64,000 nt of DNA from Sanguinoderma infundibulare. Lineage: Eukaryota > Basidiomycota > Agaricomycetes > Polyporales > Polyporaceae. Positions 16,696 through 59,379 of this stretch are shown here, in pieces. Where the stretch lies: contig JAVLRN010000005.1 in the NCBI GenBank assembly GCA_032821775.1, forward strand, positions 2,852,001 through 2,916,000, given 5' to 3'. Each line of letters starts with the position of its first letter. The first letter of the stretch is position 1. The position numbers and the translations under genes were made by a program. The notes beneath the pieces are model-generated. The model did not search any database and was not told where the DNA came from. It saw nothing but the letters and a program-made list of their open reading frames with translations.

Positions 16696-16850
16696 AACCA
16701 GTGAATAATTAAGGTTGAGACTAGGGCGTGACCGTCGGATTTGAGGCCCAGTGAGAACAGACCAGATTAAAAGCGGTTTAGATCGTATCCGGCCGGTTTC
16801 AAACGGGGTTCCCATCTGAATACGAAATGTGGCCGAAAACCCCTATATCT

Positions 16851-17140
16851 CGCGTACTCGGTCGTATACGGCTGTTGGGCGGGTACGGCACAATACGTCA
16901 GCATTCTGTTATGGTCGGTTTCATTCGGTCTAATATGGCTTCAGTCGGGTCCGGCAGGCTCTCTTTTCGCGTACTCGGTCGTATACGGCTGTAAGGCGGG
17001 TACGGCACAATACATCTGCGTTCCGTTATGGTCAGTTTCATTCGGTTTAATATGGCTTCAGTCGGGTCCGGGAAGCTCTCTCTGGTACTCGTATACGCGT
17101 ATTCAGTTGTATACGATTGCGGGGCTGTACAGTACAATAC
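16851..17140. repeat. Tandem repeat of a 117-bp unit (two full copies plus a diverged third)
   Basis: Unit 1 starts at 16851 and unit 2 at 16968, both opening with cgcgtactcggtcgtatacg and both containing atggcttcagtcgggtccgg. A third, more diverged partial copy begins near 17085. The repeated sequence is rich in gtatac-type palindromes (cgtatacg). A long open frame on the minus strand through it is repetitive and is not accepted as a gene. Confidence 0.85.
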
Positions 17141-18011: not shown

Positions 18012-18360
18012 AGGAAAACCCTCCCCACCTAATCTGGTGGGAATACAACTAAAAAGTAGGAATTAGTTCTAAATTAGTAGGATTAGTGACATTAGCTATA
18101 ATGTACACAGATTACCCCATCTGTTAGCAGCATTAGGGATAAAGTAGCACTATAGTAGTGCTACAGTATTGCTACTTTATCCCTAATCCTCCTAATAGTT
18201 GCTAATGCAGGACTACAGGCTCAGTATCTCAGAGATTTATTGGGCTGTCCAGAACTTGCAGACATCACACAAAGAAGATAAATATGAAAAGTGTATATTG
18301 AGTATAACTAATACATTGCGGTAGCTACAGACAAGCCAGGTGAAGCATTGACTCTTCAAG
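18012..18360. repeat. Left terminal inverted repeat of the cassette
   Basis: This is the inverted partner of 21020-21366, with several blocks of 20 or more identical bases separated by small indels. It contains an internal perfect 18-bp palindromic pair at 18131-18187 (attagggataaagtagca and its complement), so this arm itself can fold. Confidence 0.85.
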
Positions 18361-18479
18361 ATGTTGTAATCTGAGAGGGTGCGACCATCCTACGCCTGAT
18401 GGGAGACATTCTCACCCTCATCCTTTGTGGCGAGCCAGAACCAATAGCAAGCCCGCCGGGGACGTGAGACAGGTGCTGC

Positions 18480-21019: not shown

Positions 21020-21366
21020 CTTCTCCCGGGCGTGACTATCACCTTGGAGTGTCAACGCTTCACCTGGCTTCTCTGTAGCTACAGCAATGTATTAGTGATG
21101 TTCAATATACACTTTTCATGTCTATCTTCTACATGTGTGCAAGTTCTGGACAGCCAGCAAATCTCTGAGATACTGAACCTTTAGTCTTGCATTAGCAACC
21201 ATTAGGAGGAATTAGATATAAAGTAGCACTACTATAGTGCTATAATACCTGCTATGAGATGGGGTAACCTGTCTAAACTAGAGCTAATGTCACTAATCCT
21301 CTAATTTAGAACTAATTCCTACTTTTTAGATGTATTTCTACCAAATTAGCCTGGGGAGGTTTTTCC
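21020..21366. repeat. Right terminal inverted repeat of the cassette
   Basis: This is the complementary partner of 18012-18360. The outermost bases are ctggggaggtttttcc. It contains the 3' flank of the F-box-like gene but no coding sequence. Confidence 0.85.
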
Positions 21367-26346: not shown

Positions 26347-26476
26347 GCAACGTCGAGGTAAGCCTTGATGCCCATTCATTCGTATTCATCGCCATTGACA
26401 CACGCACAGGCTGTATTTCACGTTGTTCTTCTATTCTCATGGTACATAGTTTTACGTTTTGTTGCAATCACCTCGT

Positions 26477-27426
26477 TGATACACTATCCCAGGGCCTGTG
26501 GACAGTCGGGACGACCGAGGGCTGAGGGAGGCGAGGTTGGAGCGATGTCGCTGGTGTGGAGGGCGAGTACGGTCCCGAGTTCCCTTTGGTCGCGATCGCA
26601 ACAAGTGCCAGGGAGAGGGGAGAAACGTCGAACGAAGCTAGAGGACGAAAGTCGTGGTATAAGTCGCGCGACGAGTCGCTGTCGCAGGGTCGCAGTCGGG
26701 GGTCGCTGTCGCTGTCGCAAGTCGCAATCGCAGTCACTAGCTATACCCAGAGGAGGACGATGTCGAGCCACGGTCGCTCACCGGAGAAATGAGAGGTGAA
26801 AGGTGGGGGGGGATCCAAGATTGTGTGCCCAAACAGCCGTCGACTGGGTTAAGTACATCGAGCCCATAACTACGCGCGACAACTATAGTCTAGCCTGCCT
26901 CGCAGCGATGAGCGCCCATGACAACCCATGTCGGAAACCCATCGGAACATCAGCGACCGTCACAAGGCCGCAACTGGTCGTGCGACTTGGGGTCGGCTCG
27001 CCTTGTCATCGCATGGTCGCGCGATGTCGCTGGTCATTGGCGATCGCAGTCGGGGGTCGTGACCGATACCTGTCACCAAGACCAACTAGTGAGAGACGAC
27101 TCGCAGACCGTCACGCGACGCGACTGTAAAGATGCTGAACGACTTAACTTGTGGCCCGCCGCTATGCTGCCACGTGCGAGGCGCAGACGGGCGGGCCAGG
27201 TCGCTGTAGTCGCCAGTTCGGGCCGATCGGGAGCTTCACACTGGCGACGGAGATCGCCGACGTTCTAGGCCTTTGCCTCGTGCCAAAGGGTCGGTGCGTC
27301 GCGCGACCGCCGATGCCGTTGGCGACTCGGGAACTTCTGCGATGTCACATGGCGCGAAGTCGCGGTCGCTGTCTGAAAGGGGTAGTCGCGCCGACTTCTG
27401 TGAACGGAAGCGTCGGGTGCGCATCA
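26477..27426 (-). repeat. 3' LTR (left copy)
   Basis: This is a 950-bp direct copy of the right LTR. I counted about 35 differences by eye. All but one are transitions at CpG sites (CG in one copy, TG or CA in the other). The plus-strand start of the antisense gene lies 347 bp beyond its inner edge. Confidence 0.95.
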
Positions 27427-27439
27427 CCTCCCTCTCACT
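27427..27439 (-). other. Polypurine tract next to the 3' LTR
   Basis: Read on the minus strand the bases are agtgagagggagg, immediately before the LTR's TGAT. This is the expected position and composition for plus-strand priming in Gypsy elements, and it agrees with the pol orientation. Confidence 0.75.
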
Positions 27440-27686
27440 GTGATCTCGACCGTCCTCAGTCGCCGGGTGAAACGCCTTGAGGCAGCGGTGCCGTTGCCGC
27501 GCCGCCTTCTCTTCTTGACAGCTCGATAGGCGGCGACCTAAGTCGGACGTCTTCTCGTGCTTCTTCATAGATATGGGAGTTCTTCGGCCTGTCACGCGAC
27601 AAAGGGCAGCCTTAAACAGGTGACCCCGTGCTTCCAGCTCCATGACAAGGGCCCGGTGCGAGAAGTCGCCCAAGTCGCCGCGCCGC

Positions 27687-27693
27687 ATAAAAG
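27687..27693 (+). promoter_or_regulatory. TATA-like box of the antisense gene
   Basis: The sequence ataaaag sits 81 bp upstream of the ATG at 27774, followed by a pyrimidine-rich leader (ctcctccttccctcaccctc). Spacing and leader resemble a fungal RNA polymerase II promoter outside the LTR. Confidence 0.5.
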
Positions 27694-27773: not shown

Positions 27774-29722
27774 ATGTCCGCCAACTCCGCCTCCAAGGGG
27801 AAGACTCGCGCGACCACCGACGACCTCCGCCAGGCCGCCCTCGACAAGGCACGCGACGACGTCGAGGCCATCCTCGCCGACCCCTTCAACAGCCCTGGCC
27901 AGTCGGAGGAGGTGCAACAAGACTGGCGAGAGACGATCGCCGACCTAATTGTAAGTCGCGCGCTGTCGACTCGGGTCGCCACTGACTTCCTTTGTTCACA
28001 GGGGGTCTGGGCGGACGCCGGCGCTGCTGCCGAGGACGTGCGTCGGGTCGCCGACCGCGTTATCCTCGAGTACCCCGCGTACTGGAGCGCGGTGGCCGCC
28101 ACGTGGCCCGCGTGGGCCGGTCTGCACCTTCTCGGTGCTTACAACCGCCTGGCGCAGGCCCAGGCCGCGGAGGCCTCGCGCGCCGCCTGGGTTGCGCGAC
28201 TCCTTGCCAGGTCGTGCGCCAAGCCCTCGGCCACGCCTGCCGCCGTCGCGCCTGCTCCTCCCGCGCCGACTTCCGTACCCGACGTCGCCGCCGCCATCGC
28301 AGGCCTCGCCATCTCCCCGCCGCCTCCCACCGTCGATCCCACAACGTCGCGCCCGACGTCGTGGAACGTTTCTGGTGCGTCCATCGCTGGCGCGGTCACC
28401 ACCACCGCGGCTGTCACCACCGTCGTCGCCGTCGCCCCCGCCGTGGTCGCTGCTCCCGCCGTTCGATCGTCGCCACCGTCTATGCCACCGCCCGCCGCCC
28501 CTGGCCAGCGCAAGAAGCGTCGTCGGACCCCCCACTCCTCGTCGGGGTCGGTGGAGGTCGTTGGCGAGGGTGCCCGCGACAAGCCCACGCCAGCCAAGAA
28601 GGTGCGACCGGCCGCCACCGTTCCTTCGCCGACGCGCCACGAGCGGGTCCAGGCCAAGTTGGCGACCGTCGCGCAACCCCCGCTGGCGGTCGTGGGGGAC
28701 GAGGAGGGGGAGGAGGCTGAGGAGTCGGTGGACGAGCCCACCATCGACCTCAGTCTGTACTCGGTAAGTCGCATCGCTCTTCCTGTCTCGCGTCGCGACT
28801 AACCCTTTCGCGCAGTGCGACTACTGTGGCAAGCTGCATGAGACCGCTTGCGTCCTGCTGCCTGGTCGCGCCAAGTGCGTGAAGTGCACGGGGGCGCGGA
28901 AGGGCTGCTTGGTCGGCTCGGAGCAATACGCGACCTGGTTCGATCGGCACGGCTTTGAGCGCAGTAAGTCGCGCCTCCCCCTTTCCCTCGTCGCTGTCGC
29001 TGACCCTTTTTGTCGCAGGTGGGATCGCGACCCGGCCTCCCCACCACGTCGTCGAGGACGGCCAAGCCCCGCGCTGGAAGGTGAATGAGCGGGGCTCGGT
29101 CGTGCAGGCGACGCCGCCCCGCACCCGAGCTCGTCGGACGTGTCGCGCGACGCCCCCGCCCACGGAGTCCTGCCCGGCACGCGCTGTCCCTGGCCGCAGC
29201 GGCCCGCGCGGTGTCGCGCCTCCGGTCGCTGGCCCCTCCTCTGCTCCCGACCCACTCGCCGACCTCACCTTCACCCGCACCACCACCCTCCGGCTCCCAT
29301 CGCCGGTCGGTGACTTCCGCTGCGCTCTTCGTGCGGAAGGCCTCCCCACCATTGCCATCGCCCTCAACACCCGCATCGCCGGTCAAGGGAACGCCACCAC
29401 TGGCGATGGCGGCGACGACCTCGACCTCCTCGACTTGTCGCCAGAGCGGCACGCTTACGTCCGCGGTCTCCGCACGACCCGCTCGGCCCTCGTCGCCCAG
29501 GCCGAGGTCCTCCTCGAGCTCATCGAGGACACTCAAGTGCGCGAGTTGGTCGCGCTCGGTCAGGAGCCGTCGCCTTGGACCCCCGAGCCCACCGATGACA
29601 ACGACACAGAGTACCGGGAGTCGTCGGCCGACTCTGGCTCGGAGGACGCGGAGGGTGAGGACGACCGCGAGGATGACCGCGAGGGGGGCCCCGCGACTTT
29701 GCCTGCAGCTATGGAGGAGTAA
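27774..29722 (+). CDS. Antisense accessory protein of the retrotransposon, Zn2Cys6-like Cys cluster
   Basis: Phase-checked exons 27774-27950, 28002-28763, 28816-28963 and 29019-29722 give 596 codons without a stop. The N-terminus (MSANSASKGKTRATTDDLRQ) and exon 2 are helical, then Ala/Pro-rich. A basic segment GQRKKRRRTPHSSSG looks like a nuclear signal. Exon 3 encodes CDYCGKLHETAC, eight residues, then CVKCTGARKGC, spaced C-x2-C-x7-C-x8-C-x2-C-x6-C. This is close to fungal Zn2Cys6 DNA-binding clusters (C-x2-C-x6-C-x5-12-C-x2-C-x6-8-C). The C-terminus contains a helix around LTTRSALVAQAEVLLELIED-like sequence and a very acidic tail (DNDTEYRESSADSGSEDAEG). The gene lies opposite to pol inside the LTRs and has its own introns, so it is transcribed from the other strand. 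A DNA-binding regulator of the element is the best guess, without direct proof. A capsid-like role is the alternative. Confidence 0.75.
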
Positions 29723-29829
29723 GTCGCATCTTGTCGCGTCGCGGTCGCGACTTCTTCTTGCCCTTTTCTTCTTATGGTTTTCTTGTCGTCTCATCCTGTT
29801 CTGGTCTTGTCCCGGATTGTAGTGTAGAT

Positions 29830-29985
29830 AGTGTCGCCTCGGGGCTTGTATGATTCCAGTCGCAGTCGCCGTCGTGTTGTCTTCTTGTCGCAGTCGCAGT
29901 CGCGGTCTATTTCTTGTCGCAGTCGCAGTCTTGGTCGCAGTCGCAGTGTCGCAGTGTCGCAGTGTCGCAGTGTCGCCTCGGTCGT
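29830..29985. repeat. Dense array of GTCGC pentamers
   Basis: About fourteen GTCGC copies occur in ~150 bp just after the antisense gene, mostly as (A/T)GTCGCAG with spacings of 6-10 bp (for example four successive tgtcgcag units near 29946-29972). The same pentamer and its complement occur throughout the element, including the LTRs. Confidence 0.85.
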
Positions 29986-30281
29986 AGTAGTCCTATATTA
30001 TACACCAGTCAATAATACTATCTGATCTCGGTTTGAACGCCTGTGTGTTCTAAGATAGGTTTCCCGAGGGAAAGGCTCAGCGTGAAGTCCTTCATCGCCA
30101 AAAACCCTCGCCATCACGACAAAGTCGCGATGGAAAAATCGGTCGCAAAGGTGCGTCCGAGGTCGCAAAGAATATAAACGAGAGACTATGAAGTGGCGAT
30201 TGGGAGTATGCAAAAGATAGAAAGAGCGTAATATGGGAGATATGGAAGCGGGTCACAAATGAAAACAGATACTCAGCTCGA

Positions 30282-33200
30282 CTAGTCCGTGTCGCCCACC
30301 CCGTCGCTGTTGCTCGGCGATATCGCATCGCCAGTCGGACGATCGTCCTCGACACCCACGTCGTCGGTGTTCTTCATGTCCTCGAACCGCTTTTGCGAGA
30401 TGTCGAGGAGCTCGTCGGCGATGTCGATCGATTGTCGCGCGAGGTAGGGGAGGAGTCGGAAGGCCGCGACCGGTCGGTGAAAGACCGTCCCGTCGAGTTC
30501 ACAGACAACGTACGCTCCTCCGCAGTTGCGGGCGAGGACAACAAGCGGCCCGAGGTATCGCGGTCGCATCTTGCGGTTGAGGGCCTTCTCGATCTGCGTG
30601 TGTCGGAGGAGAACAAGGTCGCCGTGTTTGAAGTCGAAGTCGCGGATGGTCATCGCGTGGTTGCACTCGAACTTGTACGCTGCTCGAAGTCGCGCTCAGT
30701 AGACGTCGGACTGGAGGTCGGCGATCTGGTCTTGCCGCTTCTGGAGCGCTGTCGCGTGCTGCGTGATGAGATTGGTCATCGACAGGATTGAGTCGGGCGG
30801 TGGGAGCAGATAGGTCGCTTCACCAATGTCGAATGGCAGGATCGGATGACAACCTGTAGCCGCGAAGTATGGTGAGCAGCCCATGCGACGTCGCGTAGTT
30901 ACCCTTTCTGCCCAGAAGGCGAAATGAGCGACTTGCGACCACTTGGTCTCATCGCCGTCGGCGGCCTTGAACAGAACCTGTCGCACGTCGAAGTGGGGTC
31001 GCTCGACGATGCCGTTCGCCCGCGAGTTGTAGCCGCTGATTCGGATATGTCAGAGGTGATACTTGCGTGCGAGGTAGCCAGCCGCTTTGATGAAAGCCGC
31101 GCCGTTGTCGGTGACGATCTCCGCGAGGCCGCCCCAGCGACAGATGACGTCTTGGAACAGCCAGTCGCCGAGGGTCTTCTCGGTTTCGACGCGGAGCATG
31201 CACCACTCTGGGTAGTGCGAGATCGCGCAGCGCGCCTGGACGATGTACTTGAAGCCGCCGGAGGCGGGCATGTGCATGGTGTCGATGTGGACTCGCGCGA
31301 ACAACGGTGCGGGTGTCGCGACCGTCGGCGGGATAAGGACCTGTCGCGTCTGTCTCGTCTGACAGAGATGGCAAGTGCGAACGTACCAAGTGACGTCCTC
31401 ACGAAGGGACGGCCACCAGAATCGCTCCGCGATGAACTGCAACGTCGCATAATTGCCGCGATGCCCTATGTCGTCATGCGCTTGTCGGAGGATCGCGAGC
31501 CGCTGGCCAAGGCCAACTACGAGCTTGTGTGCGCCATGGGAGTCCTTCCGCCATAGCTGGTCGCCGTCGATGAAGTGCTGCTGGCAGTACTTGATGAACT
31601 GCGGATACGCCTTGTCGGAGATGTCGCCCGGCTGTCGGAGGTCGCGGAGCCACCTCTTGACCTTGTCGAGTCGCTCGTTCGCTCGCCTAGTGAAGTCAGA
31701 GGTCGGGATGTCGCTCGTCGTGGTCGCAGTGTTGCTTATCGGCTCCTGGTCGGTCGGTCCCTCCCCCTCACTGAAATCCCGACCGTCCCCGGTCGGAGAC
31801 GCGATCGTGAAAAGTTGCAGGGGAGAGGCGCGTTGCCGCGGTCGCGTCGGCAGCATCTGGTGCAGGAAGCCATGGACTTTGTCGATCCAGTCCTCGAAGC
31901 CGTCGTTGTCGTCGCGTGGCTCGTCGCCTGGTTGTGGTGGTTGCCGCGACAACCTGTCGGGTCCGTGCGACGTTCCTGGGACGTGCACTAGAGTGAAGTG
32001 AAACGTCAGTATCGCGACGATCCAACGGTTAATGCTAGCGCTCGGAGAAATGTCAGGGTTCTGGAGCATGCCCTGAATGTATCGCGCGTCGACTTCGATG
32101 ACGAGGTTTCGAACACCGATCAAGTAGACCTTGAGGTTCCGCAGGGCACGATAGAGGCCGTAGATCTCGAGCTTCGGTTGCAAGAATCGCGCCTCCCTGT
32201 TGTTGAGCGTTATTGATCCGAAGCGACTGTAGTACCGCTTGCGCGGATCGTCGATGTCGCACTGGCAGAGGTGGAAGCCGACCGCGATGTAGGAAGTGTC
32301 GACGGCGAGGATGACGGCCGCGCCCGACTCGTAGTCGATCGCGCGGAGCGCCGGCGACTCGATGACCACCTTTTTGAGGTCCTCCTGCGCATGGAGTTGC
32401 TCGTCGCCGAACTCGAAGGGGACGTCCTTCCGCGTGAGCTTCACGAGTGGCCAGGTGCGCTTCGCGAAGTTTCGAATGAAAAGTCGCAGGACGCCGACCG
32501 TGCCTATGAACACGCAGATCTCCGATATGTTCCCGCACGGTCCCCAGTTGACAATGAGGGCGACGCGCGACTGTTCAGGTTGTCGCCCGATCAGGGTGCA
32601 TCGCTGGCCGATGACGATGTTCTCGATGTCGATGGGCATCAACTTCGGCCCGGAGTAGGTGCCGCCGGCGTGGCTCATGCGTGTGACGATGCGATTCTGG
32701 TTGTCGAAGTGCTCCTTGACGAAGCGACGAATACCAGGGTTGCGCGGGATGGTCTCGTACTTGCCGTCGCGGTCGCGATAGTCGGACTTCGGGCCCTTGC
32801 CGGGGACGTCGTCGATATACGGTACCGTCCACTCCGGGATCTCGGGCTGCAAGATGTAAGTGACGTCGTCGTGAAAGATAGGTACCGAGTTGCACCACCC
32901 CATCGGGAGGGTACAGTGTCGCAATGCACCAAACGGAGTCTGGAAGGTCGTGAGGTCGCGCGACGATTTTGCGATCAGTCGCTCGTCGTAGCCGATGTAG
33001 AGGTCGTACATCGAGCCGCACGGTCGCCCGCCGAACTGCTCGGCGAGGTAGTCGGGGGTCGGGGTCACCCCCGAGTGCGCGATCGTGACCTTGTTGAGCG
33101 GCTCGAGACTGTGGACGATGCGCGGCTTCCCGTCCTTTTTCGCGACGCAGAACCAGCGACCGCGATACGACGAATTCGACGGCTCGTACACGCCGGCGGC

Positions 33201-34085
33201 GATTTTGCACTTGATGATGTCGCAGACCTCCTTGTAGAGACCTGGCGGGATCGGGATGTTCTTCTGGACCCAAGGCATGTGCGGCACGACCGGAAAATCG
33301 ACCGGCGGAAAGAACTCGGGCTTGAAGCAGCCGCGCTCCTCGTCGGTCCACGCGAACGCCGTGTTGTGGACGCACATGAAGTAGTGGAGGAGCTTGCGCT
33401 CTTCGGGCCAGAGGAAATCGGGTCGCAGCTTCTTGTCGAGGGCCTCCATGCGTTCGTGGGTGTAGCGACCGGTCGGGACGAAGTCAGGTGGATGGTCGGG
33501 GAGGATCGGCATGTTCGCGAGCGGGTCGCCGGTGATGTTGCGCACAACGCGAAACTGTTCGGGGCACGAGCCTAGGACCGGTCGCACCTTGCGCGCGACT
33601 GGCTTGTACTTCTTCTTGGTGACGAGGCCTTTCGTAATGGGATCGCGTGTGGTGAGGAAAACATTTGCGGGGGTATCTTGCGATCGCGGCGCGAAGTAGC
33701 CACGACCGTTTTTGGTCGGAAAGGAGAATACAAAAGAAGGTGAAGAAGAACAGGGGCGCATAAAGGAGAGAGAGAGAGCGATGTCGAGAGAGGGAGACGC
33801 AGGAGAAACTGGAGACGCGAGGAGAGAGAAAGAGTCCGAGGTCACAGTGGTCGGCGATGTCACCGAGGTCGTTGCGCTTGTCGCACGACATTTTTCGCTA
33901 GTAGTTGTGAGATTAGTTGAGAAATAGACGGTCGCGCGATCGTGTAGTTGGTCGCAGGCCGATAAATAGAGAGCTGGAATAGGAATAGAGTCGTCAGCGA
34001 TGCGGGTATAGGCAGAGATAATGGGGCCCCCTGGAGTGTCGTCGATGACGAGGGCGTAGTCGCCGTCGGGCGACCCGTCCTCAAA
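30282..34085 (-). pseudogene. pol: Gypsy pol: reverse transcriptase, RNase H, integrase, with two in-frame TGA stops
   Basis: From the right the frame runs NPFEDGSPDGDYALVIDDTP into the RT domain: PVVPHMPWVQKNIPIPPGLY, SYRGRWFCVAKKDGKPRIVH, FGALRHCTLPMGWCNS, and the catalytic box VPYIDDVPGKGP. RNase H follows (AAVILAVDTSYIAVGFHLCQ, LVIEVDARYIQGML). The integrase has an HHCC zinc motif (HDDIGHRGNYATLQFIAERF, TCHLCQTR), the VHIDTMHMPASGGFKYIVQA strand and DNGAAF. TGA stops at 31050-31052 (between KYHL and HIRISGYNSRANGIVER) and 30696-30698 break the integrase. The remainder to TAG at 30282 has a GPLVVLARNCGGAYVVCELD tail. CGA-to-TGA deamination fits the first stop. The frame is shifted +1 relative to the protease frame. 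Confidence 0.92.
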
Positions 34086-35517
34086 CGGGTTCGGCGCGCT
34101 TGTTGTCGATGCGAAACCGAAAGGTCAGCTGGCCTCGCGGTCGCGTCGGGATGGTCACGACTTGTCGCGTGTTCGGACACTCGAGCGTGATCGTCTGGTC
34201 TTCGTTGTTGAAGTTCTTGATGATGCTCCGCGTCAGGACGTCGAAGGGGCGACCGAGGAGCAAGTCATAAGGCGCGTTGCGAATGACGTGAACCTGTAGG
34301 TAGAGCGTAATACCACCGACAAGGAAGGGCACATTGCGAACGATACCTAGCGATGGGTCGACCGCCCCGTTCACTGACTGCATGTACAGCTGCACCGTCG
34401 GGTTGTAGGAGAGCGCCGCGTGGTGGCAGAGACCCTCAGAGATCGAGACGATTTGCGCACCACCGTCCAAGGTTCCCTCGACGTCGATCTTACCATCGAG
34501 ACAGCCGACGATCGAGCGCAGCGCATACGACTCCTTTGCGACCACGAGCGGCTGCGGCTCTTGGCCGGGGCCGAGTCGCGAGAGGTAGACGTCGTACGGG
34601 TCGGGGACTACTAGCACGCCCAGCTCCAGGGGTTCACCACGACAGGACCACGCGGTCGCAAGTTCGTCGTCGCTGGCCGCATCGGCGAAGGTGACTGTGC
34701 GCGGCTCGGTCGGTACGCGCTTTGGGGTGATCGCCTCGCGGAACTTAGCGCGCATGTCGGGCGCGATGCAGAGGAGCTCCTTGACCGAGAGCGTGATCGC
34801 CGGTGTCTTCATTGCACGTGAGTAGACCTCGTCGATCAACTTGGGCTGGTAGACCGGGACCGTGTTGCGGTAGGCTGGATCGCACTCTTTACCGCTCGCC
34901 GGTCGCGGTGTTGCGCCGACATTGGTCGTCCGTGGCGGGGCGTAAGTCGTGTCACGGGCTCCCGCGAACGGGTGCTCGGGCGCTGCTCCTTGTCGCGTGG
35001 CCGGGGTCGGTGGTCGCAGGATGGTGACAGGCCGCGCTGGCGCGGCTGCCACGGTTGCCTTGGTCGCGGCTGGGGCCGATGCCTTCGTTCCGGAACCGCT
35101 GGCGGTCGCTATCGTGGGGCCCCCATCTGGAACTTCCTCAACTCTTGCTGCAGGTCGCGGTCGCCGGGGAACGGTCATGATCTCGACTGCATCGAACTTC
35201 TCCCTTGCTTGTCGGAGGGCGAAGATCTCGTGCTCGAGCTGGGCGATGCGATCGCTGGTTGCGTCAGTGGCTGGGGCCGTTGGTGCAACCTGGAAGAGGA
35301 GCTGGCCTACCGGCGCAGTTGCATTGCGCTGATGCCACTCGTAGGCACGGTCGCGCATGGTCAGGCCGGGTAGATTGCGTGGTACGAATTGCCCATTGGG
35401 CAAAACGACCTTCCCGTCGTTGTTCCGCGCGATACGACCCGCATTGATGTCCTCGTCGACGAACCGACAGGTGCGAACCTGACAGCCCGCGTCGCCGCAG
35501 TAGTGGCAGAAACCCAT
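34081..35517 (-). CDS. Gag zinc knuckle and retroviral-type aspartic protease
   Basis: ATG at 35517, 9 bp after the gag stop, begins MGFCHYCGDAGCQVRTC. This is a CCHC-like knuckle in which the usual His is Cys (C-x2-C-x4-C-x4-C). A Pro/Ala linker follows, then the protease: DVEGTLDGGAQIVSISEGL is the active-site region with DGG where DSG/DTG is usual. The flap-side strands read QVHVIRNAPYDLLLGRPFDV. The frame ends RAEPV at 34081 and the RT frame continues +1. A frameshift or splice would be needed to make a PR-RT polyprotein. The DGG triplet also occurs in related elements as far as I recall, so it need not mean inactivity. Confidence 0.85.
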   Translation of the reverse strand: MGFCHYCGDAGCQVRTCRFVDEDINAGRIARNNDGKVVLPNGQFVPRNLPGLTMRDRAYEWHQRNATAPVGQLLFQVAPTAPATDATSDRIAQLEHEIFALRQAREKFDAVEIMTVPRRPRPAARVEEVPDGGPTIATASGSGTKASAPAATKATVAAAPARPVTILRPPTPATRQGAAPEHPFAGARDTTYAPPRTTNVGATPRPASGKECDPAYRNTVPVYQPKLIDEVYSRAMKTPAITLSVKELLCIAPDMRAKFREAITPKRVPTEPRTVTFADAASDDELATAWSCRGEPLELGVLVVPDPYDVYLSRLGPGQEPQPLVVAKESYALRSIVGCLDGKIDVEGTLDGGAQIVSISEGLCHHAALSYNPTVQLYMQSVNGAVDPSLGIVRNVPFLVGGITLYLQVHVIRNAPYDLLLGRPFDVLTRSIIKNFNNEDQTITLECPNTRQVVTIPTRPRGQLTFRFRIDNKRAEPV

Positions 35518-35526
35518 CGGTGGCGG

Positions 35527-36770
35527 TCACCCGTAGTCGGCGCGCTGTGGTGGCCCCGCGGCACCCGCCCCGGCGCCGTTGTCGCGTATCGCCTGCGCCA
35601 TCATTCGGAAGAAGGGCTCGATATCTTCCAGCTTGATGCCAGTCGCCGTCGCCGCCGCCGTCGCCGTCGCCGCCGCCGGCGCGGTCAGCGTCGCGACCGC
35701 TGTTGTCAGCGTTCCATGAAGCACGAACTGTGCAGCCTCGAGAACGTCTCGGAGGGCGTAGGGGTCGTCAGGATGGTGGTCTACAAACTTGATCTGGAGT
35801 CGCTGGGCTACCTGGTCCCATAAGGGCGGTCGGATGCCGCGCGCGAAAAGTCGCAACTGTTCCAGTACCGACAGTCGCTGGTGCTGGATCAAATAGGTAG
35901 TCATCACGAGGAAGTCCCGATGAAAACTGGAGAGTTCACCGAGCGTCGTGATCAGCGTTGCTGCGCGACCCGCGACCAGGTTATCCACGTCCGCGACCGA
36001 GTACTTGCGGGCCTCATCCGCACCCGGGTATAGCTCTGCCACGCTCGTCTTCCACTGTTCGAACGTGTACGTGTCCTCATACGAGGGAAGCGACTCCCAC
36101 AAGTCGGCGACCTCGACCTCGAGGTAGCGAATCACCCATCGTTTGTGCGGTCGGCCGGCGGCGACCTGGCACCGGTCGAAGAGTGCGTCGAGGTCTTGCC
36201 AAAAGCCGCGCAAGGTTCTTGGTCCCTCGGGGTCGAATACCGGCGCAGTCGTGTGATTGCGCGCCGGCATCGCGGGCGGCGGGTGCGCTGCTGGCTGCAG
36301 CGCTTGAAGATCAGGGGGATCCATCGCGAGCGATGAGAGCTCGCTGAGTGGAGTGAACGGGGAAACTTGTAGTGACGCTGTCGAGGGTGTCGCAGCGATA
36401 TCCGGCGACGGCGGGAGGGGAACGTCTGTCCAGTAATCGGGCGAAGGAGGAAGTGGAACGTCTTCCCAGGGTTCTGGCGACGGTGGGAGGGGAAATTCGC
36501 CAGGAATCACGCTCGGTGTCGCATGTCTCGCTCTAGACCTAACCGTCGTGGAAGATGTCGCGGCCGACGAGTCGGAAGAAGAGGGGCGGTTGTCGAGTGC
36601 GTCAATGCCGCGATTGAGGGCACGAGAGAGGAAATTGAGGATGCGACTGTATCGGGCCTCGTCACCGAGCTGAAGTCCAAGGTCGGTGATCCTATGCGCA
36701 CGAGCGACAAGTAGCTCGTGTGCGAGCGACGAACGCGAAGGAGTGGGAGGTGTCAGCGTGGCACTGTATG
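35527..36770 (-). CDS. gag: Gag (capsid) of the retrotransposon
   Basis: The frame is open from about 36770 to TGA at 35527. It includes LQLGDEARYSRILNFLSRAL near the N-terminus, a triple repeat of DVPLPPSP-type motifs, then the retrotransposon-gag core (GFWQDLDALFDRCQVAAGRP, HKRWVIRYLEVEVADLWESL, FARGIRPPLWDQVAQRL). It ends MMAQAIRDNGAG...RADYG. The first in-frame ATG is at 36324 (MDPPDLQALQ), well inside the conserved-looking N-terminal part. The true initiation may therefore be at a lost ATG or a non-AUG codon (an ACG in good context occurs near 36750). Confidence 0.85.
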
Positions 36771-36820
36771 AAAGTTACGGGGTCGCACCAAAGGCGGAGG
36801 CGAGATCTATACTCCCCCTC

Positions 36821-36833
36821 GCGGTGGGCTCCA
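36821..36833 (-). other. Primer-binding site
   Basis: On the minus strand the sequence tggagcccaccgc begins 3 bases after the end of the 5' LTR. TGG at this position pairs with the CCA end of a tRNA. The implied tRNA 3' end is gcggtgggctcca, whose identity I cannot assign. Confidence 0.75.
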
Positions 36834-36836
36834 AAA

Positions 36837-37786
36837 TGATACACTATCCCAGGGCCTGTGGACAGTCGGGACGACCGAGGGCTGAGGGAGGCGAGGTCGG
36901 AGCGACGTCGCCGGTGTGGAGGGCGAGTACGGTCCCGAGTTCCCTTTGGTCGCGATTGCAACAAGTGCCGGGGAGAGGGGAGAAACGTCGAATGAAGCTA
37001 GAGGACGAAAGTCGCGGTATAAGTCGCGCGACGAGTCGCTGTCACAGGGTCGCAGTCGGGGGTTGCTGTCGCTGTCGCAAGTCGCAATCGCAGTCACTAG
37101 CTATACCCAGAGGAGGACGATGTCGAGCCGCGGTCGCTCACCGGAGAAATGAGAGGTGAAAGGTGGGGGGGGATCCAAGATTGTGTGCCCAAACAGCCGT
37201 CAACTGGGTTAAGTACATCGAGCCCGTAACTACGCGCGACAACTATAGTCTAGCCTGCCTCGCAGCGATGAGCGCCCATGACAACCCATGTCGGAAACCC
37301 ATCGGAACATCAGCGACCGTCACAAGGCCGCAACCGGTCGTGCGATTTGGGGTCAGCTCACCTTGTCGTCGCATGGTCGTACGATGTCGCTGGTCGTCGG
37401 CGATCGCAGTCGGGGGTCGTGACCGATACCTGTCACCAAGACCAACTAGTGAGAGACGACTCGCAGACCGTCGCGCGACGCGACTGTAAAGATGCTGAAC
37501 GACTTAACTTGTGGCCCGCCGCTACGCTGCCACGTGCGAGGTGCAGACGGGCGGGCCGGGTCGCTGTAGTCGCCAGTTCGGGCCGATCGGGAGCTTCGCA
37601 CTGGCGACGGAGATTGCCGACGTTCTAGGCCTTTGCCTCGTGCCAAAGGGTCGGTGCGTCGCGCGACCGCCGATGCCATCGGTGACTCGGGAACTTCCGC
37701 GATGTCGCGTGGCGCGAAGTCGCGGTCGCTGTCTGAAAGGGGTAGTTGCACCGACTTCTGCGAACGGAAGCGTCGGGTGCGCATCA
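36837..37786 (-). repeat. 5' LTR (right copy)
   Basis: 950 bp, TGAT...ATCA ends. It retains more CpG dinucleotides at several sites where the left LTR has TpG or CpA, and the reverse at others, showing both copies have been decaying independently. It is followed by TCGT, the target duplication. Confidence 0.95.
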
Positions 37787-38371
37787 TCGTAGCCGTAGTT
37801 AGTATCGTGTATCTTTTGTTGTACGAATGGAAATGCATCTGGGTGTGATTCTTCAAACCAGGCGCACCCATTGGCTGCACATCTGGAAGCATGCCACCCA
37901 CGCGCGAGCCGAGGAAACAGGTGAGTGGAAGAATATCAGTCAAGGTATCTCGCTCGGTGAGTGGAGGAATATCAGTCAAGTTATCTCGCTCGCACTGATC
38001 AGGCAGAGGGTTCCAGCATCCACCGAAGCAAGTGGTTCACATGTGGGTGGATGCGCCAGGAGCTCATCACCCCTCTCGAAGTCGTGTTTTTCTCCAAGGA
38101 CTGGATGCGCATCAGATCGAAGCATGCCCTTCACGACCTCGTTGAGGACATCACCGGGTTCAGCTACAAAGCCCTACTGCACCTAGAATCGCTTGACCAG
38201 TTTAGCATCACACAGCAGCTCTCGTGGGCCTCAGCACGTCTGCACTTGCTTAACTAACCTGGAACCATCTTCATCACACTGTCGATGGGGATGTGCAAAC
38301 GAAGGGACAAGCACGAGCTTTGTATGACTGCTGTGGTAAGTCATGTAAAATGGAGGCATCCAACGTACAAT
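37787..38371. other. Flank of the retrotransposon, with a 36-bp tandem duplication
   Basis: A plus-strand frame from about 38050 (MRQELITPLEVVFFSKDWMR to QLSWASARLHLLN, stop 38255) may be an exon of a gene, but no start or family is evident. The duplicated 36-mer at 37921-37992 lies upstream of it. Confidence 0.4.
37921..37992. repeat. Two tandem copies of a 36-bp unit
   Basis: Copies at 37921-37956 and 37957-37992 both begin gtgagtgga and end tatctcgctcg, differing at two positions. There are only two units, without spacers. Confidence 0.9.
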
Positions 38372-41300
38372 CTACTCCTCACTGTCTGAATCCTCCTCCG
38401 GCATGACGGCTTCCTGTCGCCCAATCCAGGTCATATTGAAGCCCAGCTTCTCTATGACGAAAAACCTGTCAGAGTACAATGCAGCGAAGTGCGGGTCTTC
38501 CCTCTCCTCATGTCTTGGAGGCAGTGGCACCATTCCAATGATGGAGACAATGTCCTTGGCATCGATGACCTCTCGCGAATGGTCTCCTTGATATTGACAG
38601 GCCATCAGCACGCCATAAGTGTCTTGGACAATCGCGGGGTCAGGCAGCGTGAACACTGAGATCATTGTGAGCACAAAGTCCATCCTGTCAGTCCCTCTGT
38701 TGTCGACCATTTTCTTCAGCGCAAAAAAGTACAGTACTTCAGCGAAGTGATCATCCTTGAGCTGGGCAGAGCTATTAGAGTGTGTGCAAACCAGGAATGT
38801 GTTGTAGAGCTCTGCACCTTGACCATACGTGACCGATGCATGGGGCGGCCTCGCTTTTCTCCAGCGCACTCTTTCCAAGCTGTCCGTGCGATCTGACCAT
38901 TAGGGAGGCGTAACCAGCCCCACTTGACAATACGAGGTCTCCAGTCGCGCGGTGCCTGAACTGAATGGTCGGCAAGATACGCATGGAGCACAATGCTTTC
39001 AGATGCAGAGATGGTGCATGGATACCGCATTGTAGGGTGGAGAAGCACGTAACTGTTCCCAAGATCGACCGCACCTGGTGGAAGTGTCTCTGAAGTCTCC
39101 AACTCGTCAGGAAACATGGCGGTCAGTGCGCTGACCTGAGCACACCACAGCGCACAGTTCGCCAGATTCTCATAGGGCTTTGAATGTGAGCCGATCTCCG
39201 CTGTGAGGTTGCCAATAGCGTTCTCAAGGGGCCATTGTGAATGCAACCAACCTGGTCCAATGCGAATGTTCTCGGGGATGAGATGAGTAAGTGCATGCAA
39301 GGACTGCCGACAGAAGTGGAGACAGTCGAGGCAGCATGTGTAGTAGTACTCCTCGAACTCCTCGACATACTCGACGAGTAGTCTGTTAGCCCGGTCGCGC
39401 AGTTTGATGGGAGTCTTGACCAGCAACGAAAACCAAGCACCAGCCATGAGCTTGCAGAAGTGGAAGTAGTACTTCGGCTTTTGAACTGACCAGAGGAAGC
39501 TGGGGAGCATGCTATAGACATAGTACATGAACTCCCAAGCCTTGTAGCCACTCAAGATCTTCTCTGCAGGGTTCCGAGGCGGTCGATCAAAGGAGCCTGG
39601 CAGATAGAGAGACGCGGCAGCAACAAGTTTGCCGTGCTCCTCCCATACCTCCTGGTCAACATAGCATGCCCAGTCCCAGTTTGAAAGAGGGTCCATCGTT
39701 TTCGAGTGGCAGAAGGTACTGCGCAGCAGGTTGATGACAAGATCAGTCACGTTGAGTGCAAGCAGATGCATGATGTCCGCCGGAAAGCTCGCCGGGAAGC
39801 CGCAGTTGATGGGGAGTCCCATGAAGATGGATGGCTTCGTGATCCCGGTCCTAAGGCGGTTTGCATAGTAGCTGGCCTCGGTCTGGGATGCAAGGACTTC
39901 CTTCAGTTCCCGCCAGTATTGCCTGGCACTCAATTCTGCATCTGATGGCTGTCAAACTGAGATATCAGGGTGATTGCTCCCCCTCACTCTCTTGTAGCCA
40001 GGGTCGGCGGGCAGGAGCATTGCCGGGTAGTAGTGTCCTCCACTGCCTGGTCTCCGTCACCCTTTGAGAGGACAGAAGAGATGGCAGCCATGCGCACCAG
40101 AATGCCCAACGAGACCGTTCATGTAGGCCATGGCAGGCGTGTCACCTGTTGCAAAGAGAATGATCGGGCGTGAGTGGATGATCATCTGCCGAGATGCATC
40201 CCAGATCTTCAGTGGCGTGTTCTGAAGCGCTGCAACGTGATAGAGCCCAGGGAAGAGGAAGGAGTCGACGTTTTTTGGCTTGTTGGGACCAGGAATGATT
40301 GCCCCAGGGAAAACGTAGCGCTTCTTGTACCGCATGTCAGGGGAGACATTGAAGAGGATCCAGATGTAAATCCAGCAGTCAGACTGCTTGGATTTGTAGA
40401 GTTGGGTGCCATCAAGCGAGAGCATGAGGACTAAGTCGTCCTCCCAGATCACCCCATCCCAGACAAGCTTCAGGTACTCCTCTGCATAGAAGATGTCCTC
40501 TGCAACCTCGACTGTCTTGCCAGCATTCATCAGCTCCAGTAGATACTCCATGACCGACTCACAGTGGCACATCTGTTCTGCGCAACACTACGACCAGTAG
40601 AGAGCCTGAACCTGTGGACCAAGTGGATGTGTCTGAAAGGTGCAACGCGCAACCTGTTTCTTCCCGCATGTCTCGTAGCGCTCTGCCAGACAGAAAGGAC
40701 AGCGGTCGAGGTGGGCAAAGGGCCCGGTGAATGTGCAACAGGTAAGGTTTGGGCACATGTCTGTGAGGATCGGCACGATGCTGCTCAGTTCTTGAACGAG
40801 CTTCTGCGTCGACTCATACATTGGGAGATCGAGGTCGGGCGATGCCTTCATGATGTTCATTCAGATGTCTCGATATGCCTGCTCTGAGTGAGGAAGGGCA
40901 ATGTAATTCTTGAGGGCTAGGCAGAGTGCGCAGTTCTCCAGTGCTGAGAGGTCCGGGAGCTCGCCGTCCTGCTCAGGGTGTTGCATGCACTGGATGACAT
41001 CGGGATGAAGCCTGGAACCCTCCAAAGAAGCCGCCTTGAGCGCGTCGATAAATGCAATGGTGTGCTTCAATTCTTCCATGGAGGGTTTAGGCAGGACACC
41101 TGTCTCATCGTGCCGACCGAACTTGGGATCCTCCTCCTGCTCCTGAACATCCAAAGGATCCTGGAGATCGCACAGAGGGTCCTCGAAGTCATCGTCTGGG
41201 AAGGGAAACGGTTCTTGGCCTTGCTCCATATCTTGTGGTAAATCCGCATCTGGATCAGGCAGCGGTGTACTGCATGCAGCCTCCCCAGACATTGAAGGGT

Positions 41301-41783
41301 CCACAGGCTGTGTGCTCGGCATTAGAAAATGTTCGTGTATGCGCATATACGAACCTCGAACCTGTTCAGTGTGAGAGCCAGCTGCATTGCTTGCGGCAGA
41401 TGGGTGTGTGGAGCTGCCTGGATCCAAACCTTGCTGCGTGCCATCTGGGGTCAGGGGCATATGGTGCATGGCCTCCTTGGATGTCAGAGTGCCAGCCTGT
41501 GCAATAAAGTGTTAATGAAGCTCAATATATGCTATGGAATCTGACAAATGTCTGTTTGAATGCGCCTCCGCTTGGCACTGTGGGTGGGCTGCAAGTCTTC
41601 CGGCCTATGCGAGGAGCCTGAAAGTGCCGGGTTCGCTTGTCGAAGGGCGTCGAGCAATGGCTGATCGCAGTACTGGGTGTGGCAGTAATAGGTGTGCTCT
41701 GCAACCTGGTGCTGCTGTCCCCTGCAGTACTTGAGGCAGTCGCAAAAGTATTCTGTCCGCTGAGAGCTTGTCGTGGGTTCCAT
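38372..41783 (-). pseudogene. Tnp2-type (CACTA/En-Spm-like) transposase, decayed
   Basis: The frame reads from TEYFCDCLKYCRGQQHQVAE at the N-terminus, a CxCxxC-type motif typical of agaricomycete Tnp2 transposases. It continues through CTFTGPFAHLDRCPFCLAER (zinc motif) and the DDE-type core LVLMLSLDGTQLYKSKQSDC and ILFATGDTPAM. The conserved block follows: SIFMGLPINCGFPASFPADI, MHLLALNVTDL, DWACYVDQEVWEEHGK, SFDRPPRNPAEKILSGYKAW, WPLENAIGNLTAEIGSHSKP. It is broken by stops at 40861-40863 (TGA), 40588-40590 (TAG), 40057-40059 (TGA) and 39952-39954 (TGA), and by a frameshift near 38790-38880, after which the tail AELYNTFLVCTHSNSSAQLK continues to 38372. Terminal repeats were not found. It is non-functional. 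Confidence 0.88.
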
Positions 41784-58560: not shown

Positions 58561-58810
58561 AGTTCGCCGCGGCGCTCGCAGAGGGTTAATTTGAGAGCTA
58601 TTGCTTGGCTATTGCGAGAGTTTACTTATTGAAGAGAGCCGAGGATCGATCGGCCCCTCTTAACTTTATCTGCCAGATAACGAGGGTGGTTGCCAGTAAA
58701 CGCCGCTCTTGACAATCACACTGCCAGAGAGGATACAAACGCTTCGAGCATGTCCGCGGACGCGAAGCGCATGTTGTCTTCTATGGCCGACGGACCTACC
58801 CTTCCCCTTT

Positions 58811-59379
58811 GACCCAGTTACGAGTCGAGGTGGTCTTCGACTGGGAACTCGCCCGGCCGAGTCTAGCTGCATACCAATCATCCCCGCCGCAATCCAGTGA
58901 GTGAAGAAATTACGTCTTTCTTGTTCGGTTTGTGTTCAAGGTCCTTGGAGATCGAATGCACGCAACTTATTTCGTCATGAACACATGCACACATGACGCT
59001 TATCTCGTTCACCGAGAGAAAGTTCAAGTACCGCCATCCTCGATACACAGTGGAAGAACGCCACGCAAGCTCGACGGCGACTTGCATACCGAACGTGCAC
59101 TGGCATCGCCGCTTGCTTGCCGCGGGCTATCCTGTCCCCCTGACCCAGTCACGAGTCGACGTGGCCTTCGACTGGGAACTCGCCCCGCCGAATTTAGCTG
59201 CATACGAATCATCCCCGCCGCAATCCAGTGAGTGAAGAAATTACGTCTTTCTTGTTCGGTTTGTGTTCAAGGTCCTTGGAGATCGAATGCACGCAACTTG
59301 TTTCGTCATGAACACATGCACACATGACGCTTATCTCGTTCACCGAGAGAACGTTCAAGTACCGCCATGCTCGATACAT
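58811..59379. repeat. Direct repeat, ~238 bp, period 331 bp
   Basis: Copies at 58811-59048 and 59142-59379 share the ~150-base block starting aatccagtgagtgaagaaat almost identically, and the flanking parts at lower similarity. Both begin gacccagt(t/c)acgagtcga and include a coding-like peptide (VFDWELARPSLAAYQSSPPQ and AFDWELAPPNLAAYESSPPQ) followed by a gtgagt donor. This suggests that one exon-intron unit of a lost gene was duplicated in tandem. No complete gene remains. Confidence 0.85.

What the first reader, a model, noticed from the sequence alone, without database searches (positions are those of the whole stretch)
27774..29722. Spliced antisense zinc-cluster gene inside a Ty3/Gypsy element
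Between pol and the 3' LTR, on the opposite strand to gag-pol, lies a 596-codon four-exon gene with its own TATA-like box. It encodes a nuclear-type basic motif and a Cys cluster (C-x2-C-x7-C-x8-C-x2-C-x6-C) close to Zn2Cys6 DNA-binding domains. It stays fully open and correctly spliced while pol has acquired stops, suggesting selection or recent function. Extra and antisense ORFs at this position are known in plant Tat-lineage Gypsy elements. An intron-containing, zinc-cluster version in a basidiomycete is, to my knowledge, not a standard annotated class. A self-encoded regulator of the element is plausible.
Basis: partly seen in the sequence, partly recalled or inferred. Interest (0 to 1): 0.88.

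Follow-up and report, generated by a model that had tools for sequence, protein, structure and literature searches.

The report
Retrotransposon's self-targeting antisense zinc-cluster gene
A retrotransposon in this genome carries, on the strand opposite its usual genes, a conserved gene that is predicted to be spliced and to make a nuclear zinc-cluster protein, which likely acts on a short DNA word (GTCGC) packed through the element's own copies.

Summary
At 27774-29722 (+) lies a four-exon, 596-codon gene between pol and the 3' LTR of a minus-strand Ty3/Gypsy element. It is a fixed part of the lineage: 29 of 29 related pol copies found in the genome have it, always antisense. Exon phases are conserved while intron lengths vary, and two family-level pairs show purifying selection (dN/dS 0.24 and 0.29; CpG-biased neutral simulation about 0.7). 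Three further findings. (1) Elements with pol ends 94-95% identical carry antisense genes only about 55% identical, so the 3' part (U3 plus gene) behaves as a cassette that recombines between elements. (2) GTCGC is the most over-represented 5-mer in the element: 20 per kb, host 3 per kb; it is also enriched at synonymous sites, and mostly at different positions in different families. (3) A distant lineage has its own antisense zinc-cluster gene and a different, weaker enriched word (ACCRCGC). Best reading: an element-encoded DNA-binding factor acting on its own copies, probably anti-silencing or activating, analogous to plant VANC proteins. Binding and expression are untested. Antisense extra genes are known in plant and Botrytis Gypsy elements, so this is a new variant of a known kind.

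The parts
26477..27426 (-). 3' LTR (TG...CA, 950 bp; U3 is the end near 27426)
27427..27436 (-). polypurine tract (GAGAGGGAGG on the minus strand) abutting the 3' LTR
   Evidence: read from the sequence
27686..27693 (+). TATA-like CATAAAAG; a CATA-type box at a similar distance before the ATG in six of six lineage-A genes and one of one lineage-B gene compared
27774..27950 (+). antisense gene exon 1
   Evidence: homologues
28002..28763 (+). antisense gene exon 2 (conserved N-terminal domain, Ala/Pro linker)
   Evidence: alignment
28509..28526 (+). basic run RKKRRR (residues 229-234), nuclear-localisation-like by eye
   Evidence: read from sequence
28816..28963 (+). antisense gene exon 3
28816..28908 (+). 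zinc-cluster-like motif C-x2-C-x7-C-x8-C-x2-C-x6-C, same spacing in the five lineage-A sequences aligned over its full length
29019..29722 (+). antisense gene exon 4 with stop
29580..29692 (+). acidic C-terminal tail
   Evidence: read from sequence
29723..30281 (+). GTCGC-rich stretch between gene and pol (21 forward, 1 reverse)
30011..30015 (+). AATAA, poly(A)-signal-like, seen in 4 of 5 genes compared
30282..34124 (-). pol (RNase H, integrase), two in-frame stops in this copy
34081..36774 (-). gag and protease frame, one in-frame stop in this copy
36818..36833 (-). putative primer-binding site TGGAGCCCACCGCGAG (tRNA not identified)
   Evidence: read from sequence
36837..37786 (-). 5' LTR

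Best explanation
This is a conserved four-exon gene, antisense to gag-pol in a Ty3/Gypsy element, predicted to encode a nuclear zinc-cluster protein that likely binds the GTCGC words packed through the element's own DNA and would keep those copies transcribed against the host's silencing. Shown: the gene, its fixed antisense place, purifying selection between family members, incongruent histories of the 3' cassette (U3 plus gene) and pol, and motif saturation at both non-coding and synonymous coding sites. Inferred: that the gene is transcribed from its own TATA-like box and spliced, that the protein enters the nucleus, that it is the binder of GTCGC, and that binding counters silencing (CpG decay in copies suggests methylation) rather than represses. 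The antisense orientation also explains how introns survive: the genomic RNA is copied from the other strand, where these introns cannot be spliced.
For: Fixed: 29 of 29 lineage-A pol copies found carry it on the opposite strand, its start 2.4-4.0 kb from the integrase probe (one mis-pairing corrected by hand; the search counts are lower bounds). Spliced type: the same exon phases with introns of 51/52/55, 59/55/49, 58/53/51 and 52/50/51 nt in four families. Selection: dN/dS 0.24 (95% 0.19-0.31; neutral 0.54-0.77) for L024-L029 and 0.29 (0.23-0.35; neutral 0.62-0.89) for L015-L018, the latter two both broken copies. Motif: GTCGC 227 observed, 72 expected, top of all 5-mers; 12 host 1-kb bins with GC of 0.58 or more hold 2-7, ten element bins 11-32; synonymous shuffles reach the observed count in 0 of 1000 for gag, pol and the antisense gene and 6 of 1000 for pro. 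Independent positions: of 39 and 52 sites in the family-1 and family-3 genes (introns included) 6 coincide; of 15 and 14 in U3, 3. Own-element specificity: on contig C1, 28 of 62 listed, partly overlapping GTCGC triplets lie in one 11-kb lineage-A copy (counted by hand). Second lineage: antisense zinc cluster in 3 of 5 lineage-B loci and a different word, ACCRCGC: 42 in one element, 13 in 52.7 kb of host, 8 in lineage A; 0 of 1000 shuffles reach it in gag-pro or pol. Lineage C (2 loci): no zinc-cluster frame on the antisense strand, 0.9 GTCGC per kb. Silencing pressure: transitions at CpG 0.13-0.14 against 0.026-0.030 at other C/G.
Against: No binding, expression or methylation data. All four lineage-A families are rich in GTCGC although their zinc clusters are only 39% identical between families 1 and 3. 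Unlike VANC motifs, GTCGC is also dense in coding DNA; tandem arrangement was not tested. In the stretch after the gene 9 of 19 and 11 sites do coincide between families. ACCRCGC is weaker, sparse in the lineage-B LTR (2), not significant in its antisense frame (88 of 1000), and its R form was chosen after seeing the whole element. U3 and gene do not always travel together (L012: gene 92%, U3 80%; L016: gene 83%, U3 93%). No Pfam, PDB or homologue hit; exon-3 model pLDDT 54. WIN-L024 dN/dS 0.65 equals neutral (saturated).
Confidence: 0.45

Rival explanations
1. The antisense protein is a self-repressor or copy-number brake: it binds the element's own DNA or RNA and limits transposition.
For: Conserved nuclear-type architecture and dense self-motif fit a repressor as well as an activator; antisense transcription could also feed RNA silencing (inference).
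Against: Basic run, zinc cluster and acidic tail resemble activators more (inference). A brake is hard to keep by selection on individual copies, yet the gene is in 29 of 29 copies found.
Confidence: 0.2
2. It is an activator of its own U3 promoter only (Tat/Tax-like), and the GTCGC saturation has another cause, such as a host factor or a copying bias.
For: U3 and gene diverge together at family level (both about 55% between families 1 and 3 while the pol end is 94-95%). GTCGC is shared by families with very different zinc clusters.
Against: A U3-only factor does not explain enrichment at synonymous sites of gag, pol and the antisense gene, nor a different word in lineage B. L012 and L016 break the U3 linkage.
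Confidence: 0.15
3. The protein is a nucleic-acid chaperone or particle component (accessory Gag-like), not a regulator.
For: Cys clusters also occur in nucleocapsids (recalled); no Zn_clus match above cutoff.
Against: The element already has a Cys-rich motif (CHYCGDAGCQVRTC, by eye) in its gag-pro frame; a separate antisense spliced gene would be an odd place for a structural protein.
Confidence: 0.12
4. Chance open frame, or a host gene captured once by this copy.
For: High GC makes long open frames common.
Against: 29 of 29 copies found, conserved intron phases, dN/dS 0.24 and 0.29, a zinc-cluster frame at the same place in a second lineage.
Confidence: 0.02

Closest known systems
Antisense additional ORFs between pol and 3' LTR of plant Gypsy elements (maize Grande gene23, rice RIRE2, Silene Retand)
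   Same: Same position and orientation; TRP28 antisense ORFs in 97% of Retand clusters; Grande's is transcribed from its own upstream promoter and its protein is nuclear (passages of PMC7264820 and PMC11963269).
   Different: Retand's carry the TRP28 domain; no Pfam family matches here. The terms intron and zinc have no occurrence in either paper's main text. Motif saturation and cassette exchange do not appear in the passages I saw.
brtn, antisense gene of Boty-like Gypsy elements in Botrytis cinerea (Zhao et al. 2011; only its citation and a passage of PMC8365987 seen)
   Same: Antisense extra gene in a fungal Gypsy element.
   Different: Sequence not compared; structure and domain not seen.
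VANC proteins of Arabidopsis VANDAL elements (PMC5735166 passages; PMC10398659 abstract)
   Same: Element-encoded protein; short motif dense in its own family and rare elsewhere; motif differs between lineages.
   Different: VANDALs are DNA transposons (recalled); VANC motifs sit in non-coding tandem repeats, while GTCGC is also in coding DNA. Binding and loss of methylation are shown there, not here.
HTLV-1 HBZ
   Same: Antisense-encoded nuclear regulator of a retrovirus (PMC11963269 passage).
   Different: HBZ is a bZIP protein (recalled); no bZIP or other Pfam match here.
Fungal Zn2Cys6 factors (Gal4 type)
   Same: Six cysteines in two CxxC...C halves; one lineage-B locus (L037) has the canonical spacing.
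   Different: First loop x7 in lineage A and x5 in L031 and L036 instead of x6 (spacing rule recalled); Pfam Zn_clus below cutoff or absent in all seven fragments tested.

Membership tests
Ty3/Gypsy LTR retrotransposon | LTRs; RNase H followed by integrase in pol | tested here: met
   LTRs; RT_RNaseH then Integrase_H2C2 above cutoff; gag-asp_proteas below cutoff and no RT-fingers/palm family listed at E up to 1
[quoted passage not shown]
   29 of 29 copies found
Antisense aORF class of plant Gypsy elements | TRP28 domain (Retand) | tested here: not met
   no Pfam family at E up to 1
Botrytis brtn | sequence homology to brtn | not tested
Fungal Zn2Cys6 (PF00172) | canonical spacing C-x2-C-x6-C-x5..12-C-x2-C-x6..8-C (recalled) | tested here: inconclusive
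   lineage A x7, L031 and L036 x5: off by one; L037 x6: fits
Fungal Zn2Cys6 (PF00172) | Pfam curated score | tested here: not met
   1 of 7 fragments matches at all, 8.6 bits, cutoff 21
VANC-type anti-silencing system | short motif dense in own family, rare elsewhere | tested here: met
VANC-type anti-silencing system | motif differs between lineages with different proteins | tested here: inconclusive
   two lineages only, GTCGC and ACCRCGC; four lineage-A families share one motif
VANC-type anti-silencing system | protein binds motif and removes methylation | not testable with these tools
   needs binding and methylation assays
HBZ-like retroviral antisense regulators | bZIP domain | tested here: not met
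   no Pfam match

The most novel reading that the evidence does not exclude
An LTR retrotransposon lineage has evolved a private regulatory code: an antisense, intron-bearing gene makes a zinc-cluster protein that recognises a five-base word, and selection has filled the whole element, including silent codon positions, with that word so that only its own copies are opened; related lineages swap the gene and promoter as a cassette, and a distant lineage uses a different protein and word. That would be a retrotransposon counterpart of the VANC self-recognition systems of DNA transposons.
Probability: 0.35. Interest if true: 0.9.

Novelty: new variant of a known kind. Interest (0 to 1): 0.76.

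Why it matters
What antisense accessory genes of Gypsy elements do is an open question in plants and fungi. Here one genome holds about thirty copies of several families, some very young, a candidate target word and a second lineage with a different word, so the question becomes directly testable by one binding assay. If true, it shows how a retrotransposon can recognise itself and evade silencing, and why regulator and promoter recombine as a cassette.

Tried and rejected
Chance ORF and one-off host-gene capture: rejected. Fast adaptive evolution of the antisense gene as the cause of its divergence between families: rejected, because synonymous divergence is itself 4.6-10 times that of pol (WIN-L024 1.00 against 0.158; WIN-L018 0.77 against 0.166; L024-L029 0.69 against 0.069); within families it is not higher than in pol (WIN-L009 0.072 against 0.116; WIN-L013 0.22 against 0.33). 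GTCGC kept because its CpG decays more slowly: not supported; decay in GTCGC is 0.102 against 0.133 overall, similar to other TCG contexts. GC content as the cause: not supported. Protein homologues: three searches found none; in the first two only the roughly 8,000 candidates sharing most words were scored, and whether that collection holds fungal proteomes was not tested. PDB profile search: best E 0.67. Exon-3 structure model too poor to search. pol does not reject family 1 as one clade (p 0.325), so the topological evidence for exchange rests on family 2 (p 0.023; two trees of 12 copies, L013 and L015 flagged for odd base make-up) and on branch lengths.

Full report
What is there. The window lies in a 48.9-Mb genome held as G000. 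LTRs at 26477-27426 and 36837-37786 (950 bp, 96.2% identical) enclose a minus-strand Ty3/Gypsy element: gag-pro 36774-34081, pol 34124-30282, with RNase H and integrase Pfam matches, a primer-binding-site-like stretch and a polypurine tract at the inner LTR edges (read). In this copy pol has two in-frame stops and gag-pro one; in other copies (for example L024) the compared pol codons have no stop.

It belongs to the element. Searches with the window's gene and a distant relative found 32 loci with the gene or pieces of it (the search warns that counts are lower bounds). All 29 pol copies found whose integrase end is at least 75% identical (28 whole and one split) have the gene on the opposite strand beyond pol; the script's nearest-neighbour rule mis-paired one (C4:2014821), whose true partner at 3190 bp I assigned by hand. 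Three gene fragments lack such a pol nearby (C12:409850, C4:3199844, C13:568540). I fetched 20 loci of 10 kb besides the window and one of 5.5 kb; the remaining 10 of 32 were seen only as search rows. Four sequence families of the gene occur: the window's family 1, families 2 and 3, and 3b (L029). Of 22 genes lifted over, the window's included, 11 are fully open (WIN, L009, L012, L013, L022, L024-L029). Two fragments (L017, L019: 33 and 19 stops) were then dropped; the other nine have stops, frameshifts or an insertion. Exon phases are the same in all families while intron lengths differ, so the frame holds only if the introns are removed; of the 20 models kept, one (L014) has lost a donor.

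Selection. NG86 dN/dS is 0.24 for L024-L029 and 0.29 for L015-L018. Because substitutions here are mostly CpG transitions (0.13-0.14 per CpG base against 0.026-0.030), I simulated neutral change with that bias: mean neutral dN/dS is 0.65-0.75, so these two pairs lie clearly below it, family-1 pairs (0.43-0.51) modestly so with overlapping intervals, WIN-L018 (0.49) slightly, and the saturated WIN-L024 pair (0.65) not at all. In 14 copies where both could be compared, the gene has 5 in-frame stops in 8,982 codons and pol 30 in 14,326; codon make-up was not controlled, frameshifted copies and copies with pol only partly held were left out, and the window's pol count is zero by construction because the probe ends at its first stop.

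Cassette exchange. Against the window, elements of families 2 and 3 are mostly 86-97% identical in 250-bp bins through pro and pol; identity falls within about 500 bp beyond pol to 47-72% over the antisense gene and to 53-60% in U3, rising again to about 80% in the outer LTR part (L023's outer LTR, 42%, is an exception). Synonymous divergence shows this is not fast evolution: pol 0.158 but gene 1.00 for WIN-L024. In trees of 12 copies, pol groups L018 (family 2) with family 3 (96/96) and rejects a family-2 clade (p 0.023); in the gene tree family 2 is one clade (100/100) and a pol-like grouping is rejected (p 4e-9). Family 1 as a clade is not rejected by pol (p 0.325). U3 and gene usually but not always move together (L012 and L016 are exceptions). 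Much of gag also differs in L021 (43-47% in two bins), so exchange is not confined to the 3' end.

The word GTCGC. In the window's element GTCGC/GCGAC occurs 227 times in 11.3 kb, 72 expected from dinucleotides, the most over-represented of all 5-mers; it is also the top 5-mer in the one locus tested each from families 2, 3 and 3b. In the window the rise is sharp at both LTR edges, and host bins of similar GC hold 2-7 per kb against 11-32. Among fetched loci, the six young family-3 copies hold 20-22 per kb, diverged ones such as L013 and L014 7-8, the fragment L019 6.3 and the degenerate L017 0.6. Synonymous shuffling shows enrichment beyond codon use in gag, pol, pro and the antisense gene; it is seen on both strands except in pro, where only GCGAC is raised. 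In the gene and U3, where families 1 and 3 are hardly alignable, few sites coincide (6 of 39 and 52; 3 of 15 and 14), so the density was gained or maintained largely independently; in the stretch after the gene 9 of 19 and 11 coincide. Genome-wide, triplets of the word occur 1117 times against 260 for the reversed control; only the first places (contig C1 and part of C2) were listed.

Other lineages. Of five lineage-B loci examined (pol integrase end 47-61% identical), three (L031, L036, L037) have an antisense zinc-cluster frame past pol, L030 keeps only the last part of that gene, and the decayed L035 shows none. These frames were not modelled as full genes; the first frame of L031 ends early. 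One lineage-B element (L034 plus L031; LTRs 830 bp, 99.88% identical) has GTCGC only slightly above host (5 per kb; 25 to 144 of 1000 shuffles reach it) but is enriched for ACCRCGC; this is weaker evidence, since the word was picked from many 7-mers, though ACCACGC tops its non-coding DNA alone and the coding test is separate. Two lineage-C loci have neither an antisense zinc-cluster frame nor a strong word.

Mechanism. A protein with a basic run, a zinc cluster and an acidic tail, carried with its U3 as a recombining cassette by elements saturated with one short word, is best read as a self-directed DNA-binding regulator. CpG decay points to methylation, so I favour anti-silencing or activation over repression. 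That the protein binds the word is inference.

What is known. Antisense extra ORFs at this place are a recognised class in plant Gypsy elements, with unknown function (PMC7264820, PMC11963269: passages); Botrytis Boty carries brtn (citation and one passage). VANC proteins give the closest working model (PMC5735166 passages; PMC10398659 abstract and outline). Passages of PMC12859917 and PMC11728184 added nothing on fungal elements. Eight full-text searches, some with capped lists, listed no paper whose title or abstract start describes an intron-bearing zinc-cluster antisense gene in a fungal Gypsy element; none searched specifically for motif saturation of LTR retrotransposons, and most subscription-journal papers are not held.

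Noticed in passing
38372-41511 (-): Second mobile element: an ORF at 40057-40587 matches Transposase_21 (tnp2), E 3e-11; two neighbouring large ORFs tested match nothing in Pfam.
   Followed up: partly
18013-18363 and 21040-21366: Inverted repeats of about 350 bp, 82% identical, 3.35 kb end to end: possibly a terminal-inverted-repeat transposon.
   Followed up: no
58786-59047 / 59119-59378 and 16850-16964 / 16967-17081: Short tandem duplications, 93.5% and 91% identical.
   Followed up: no
26440-26476 and 37787-37810: No obvious target-site duplication flanks the element by eye, so this copy may be a recombinant or its ends may have changed.
   Followed up: no
34081-34124 (-): The pro and pol frames overlap in different reading frames in the window; the overlap stretch is recognisable in 13 of 13 other copies compared, suggesting programmed frameshifting.
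   Followed up: partly
L021 and L020, gag end: The gag part held of these family-3 copies matches the window's only over its C-terminal end, unlike most other family-3 copies: gag may also be exchanged.
   Followed up: no
L036 about 1500-1830 (after reverse complement): A stretch resembling a lineage-A LTR by translation seems to interrupt a lineage-B antisense gene.
   Followed up: no
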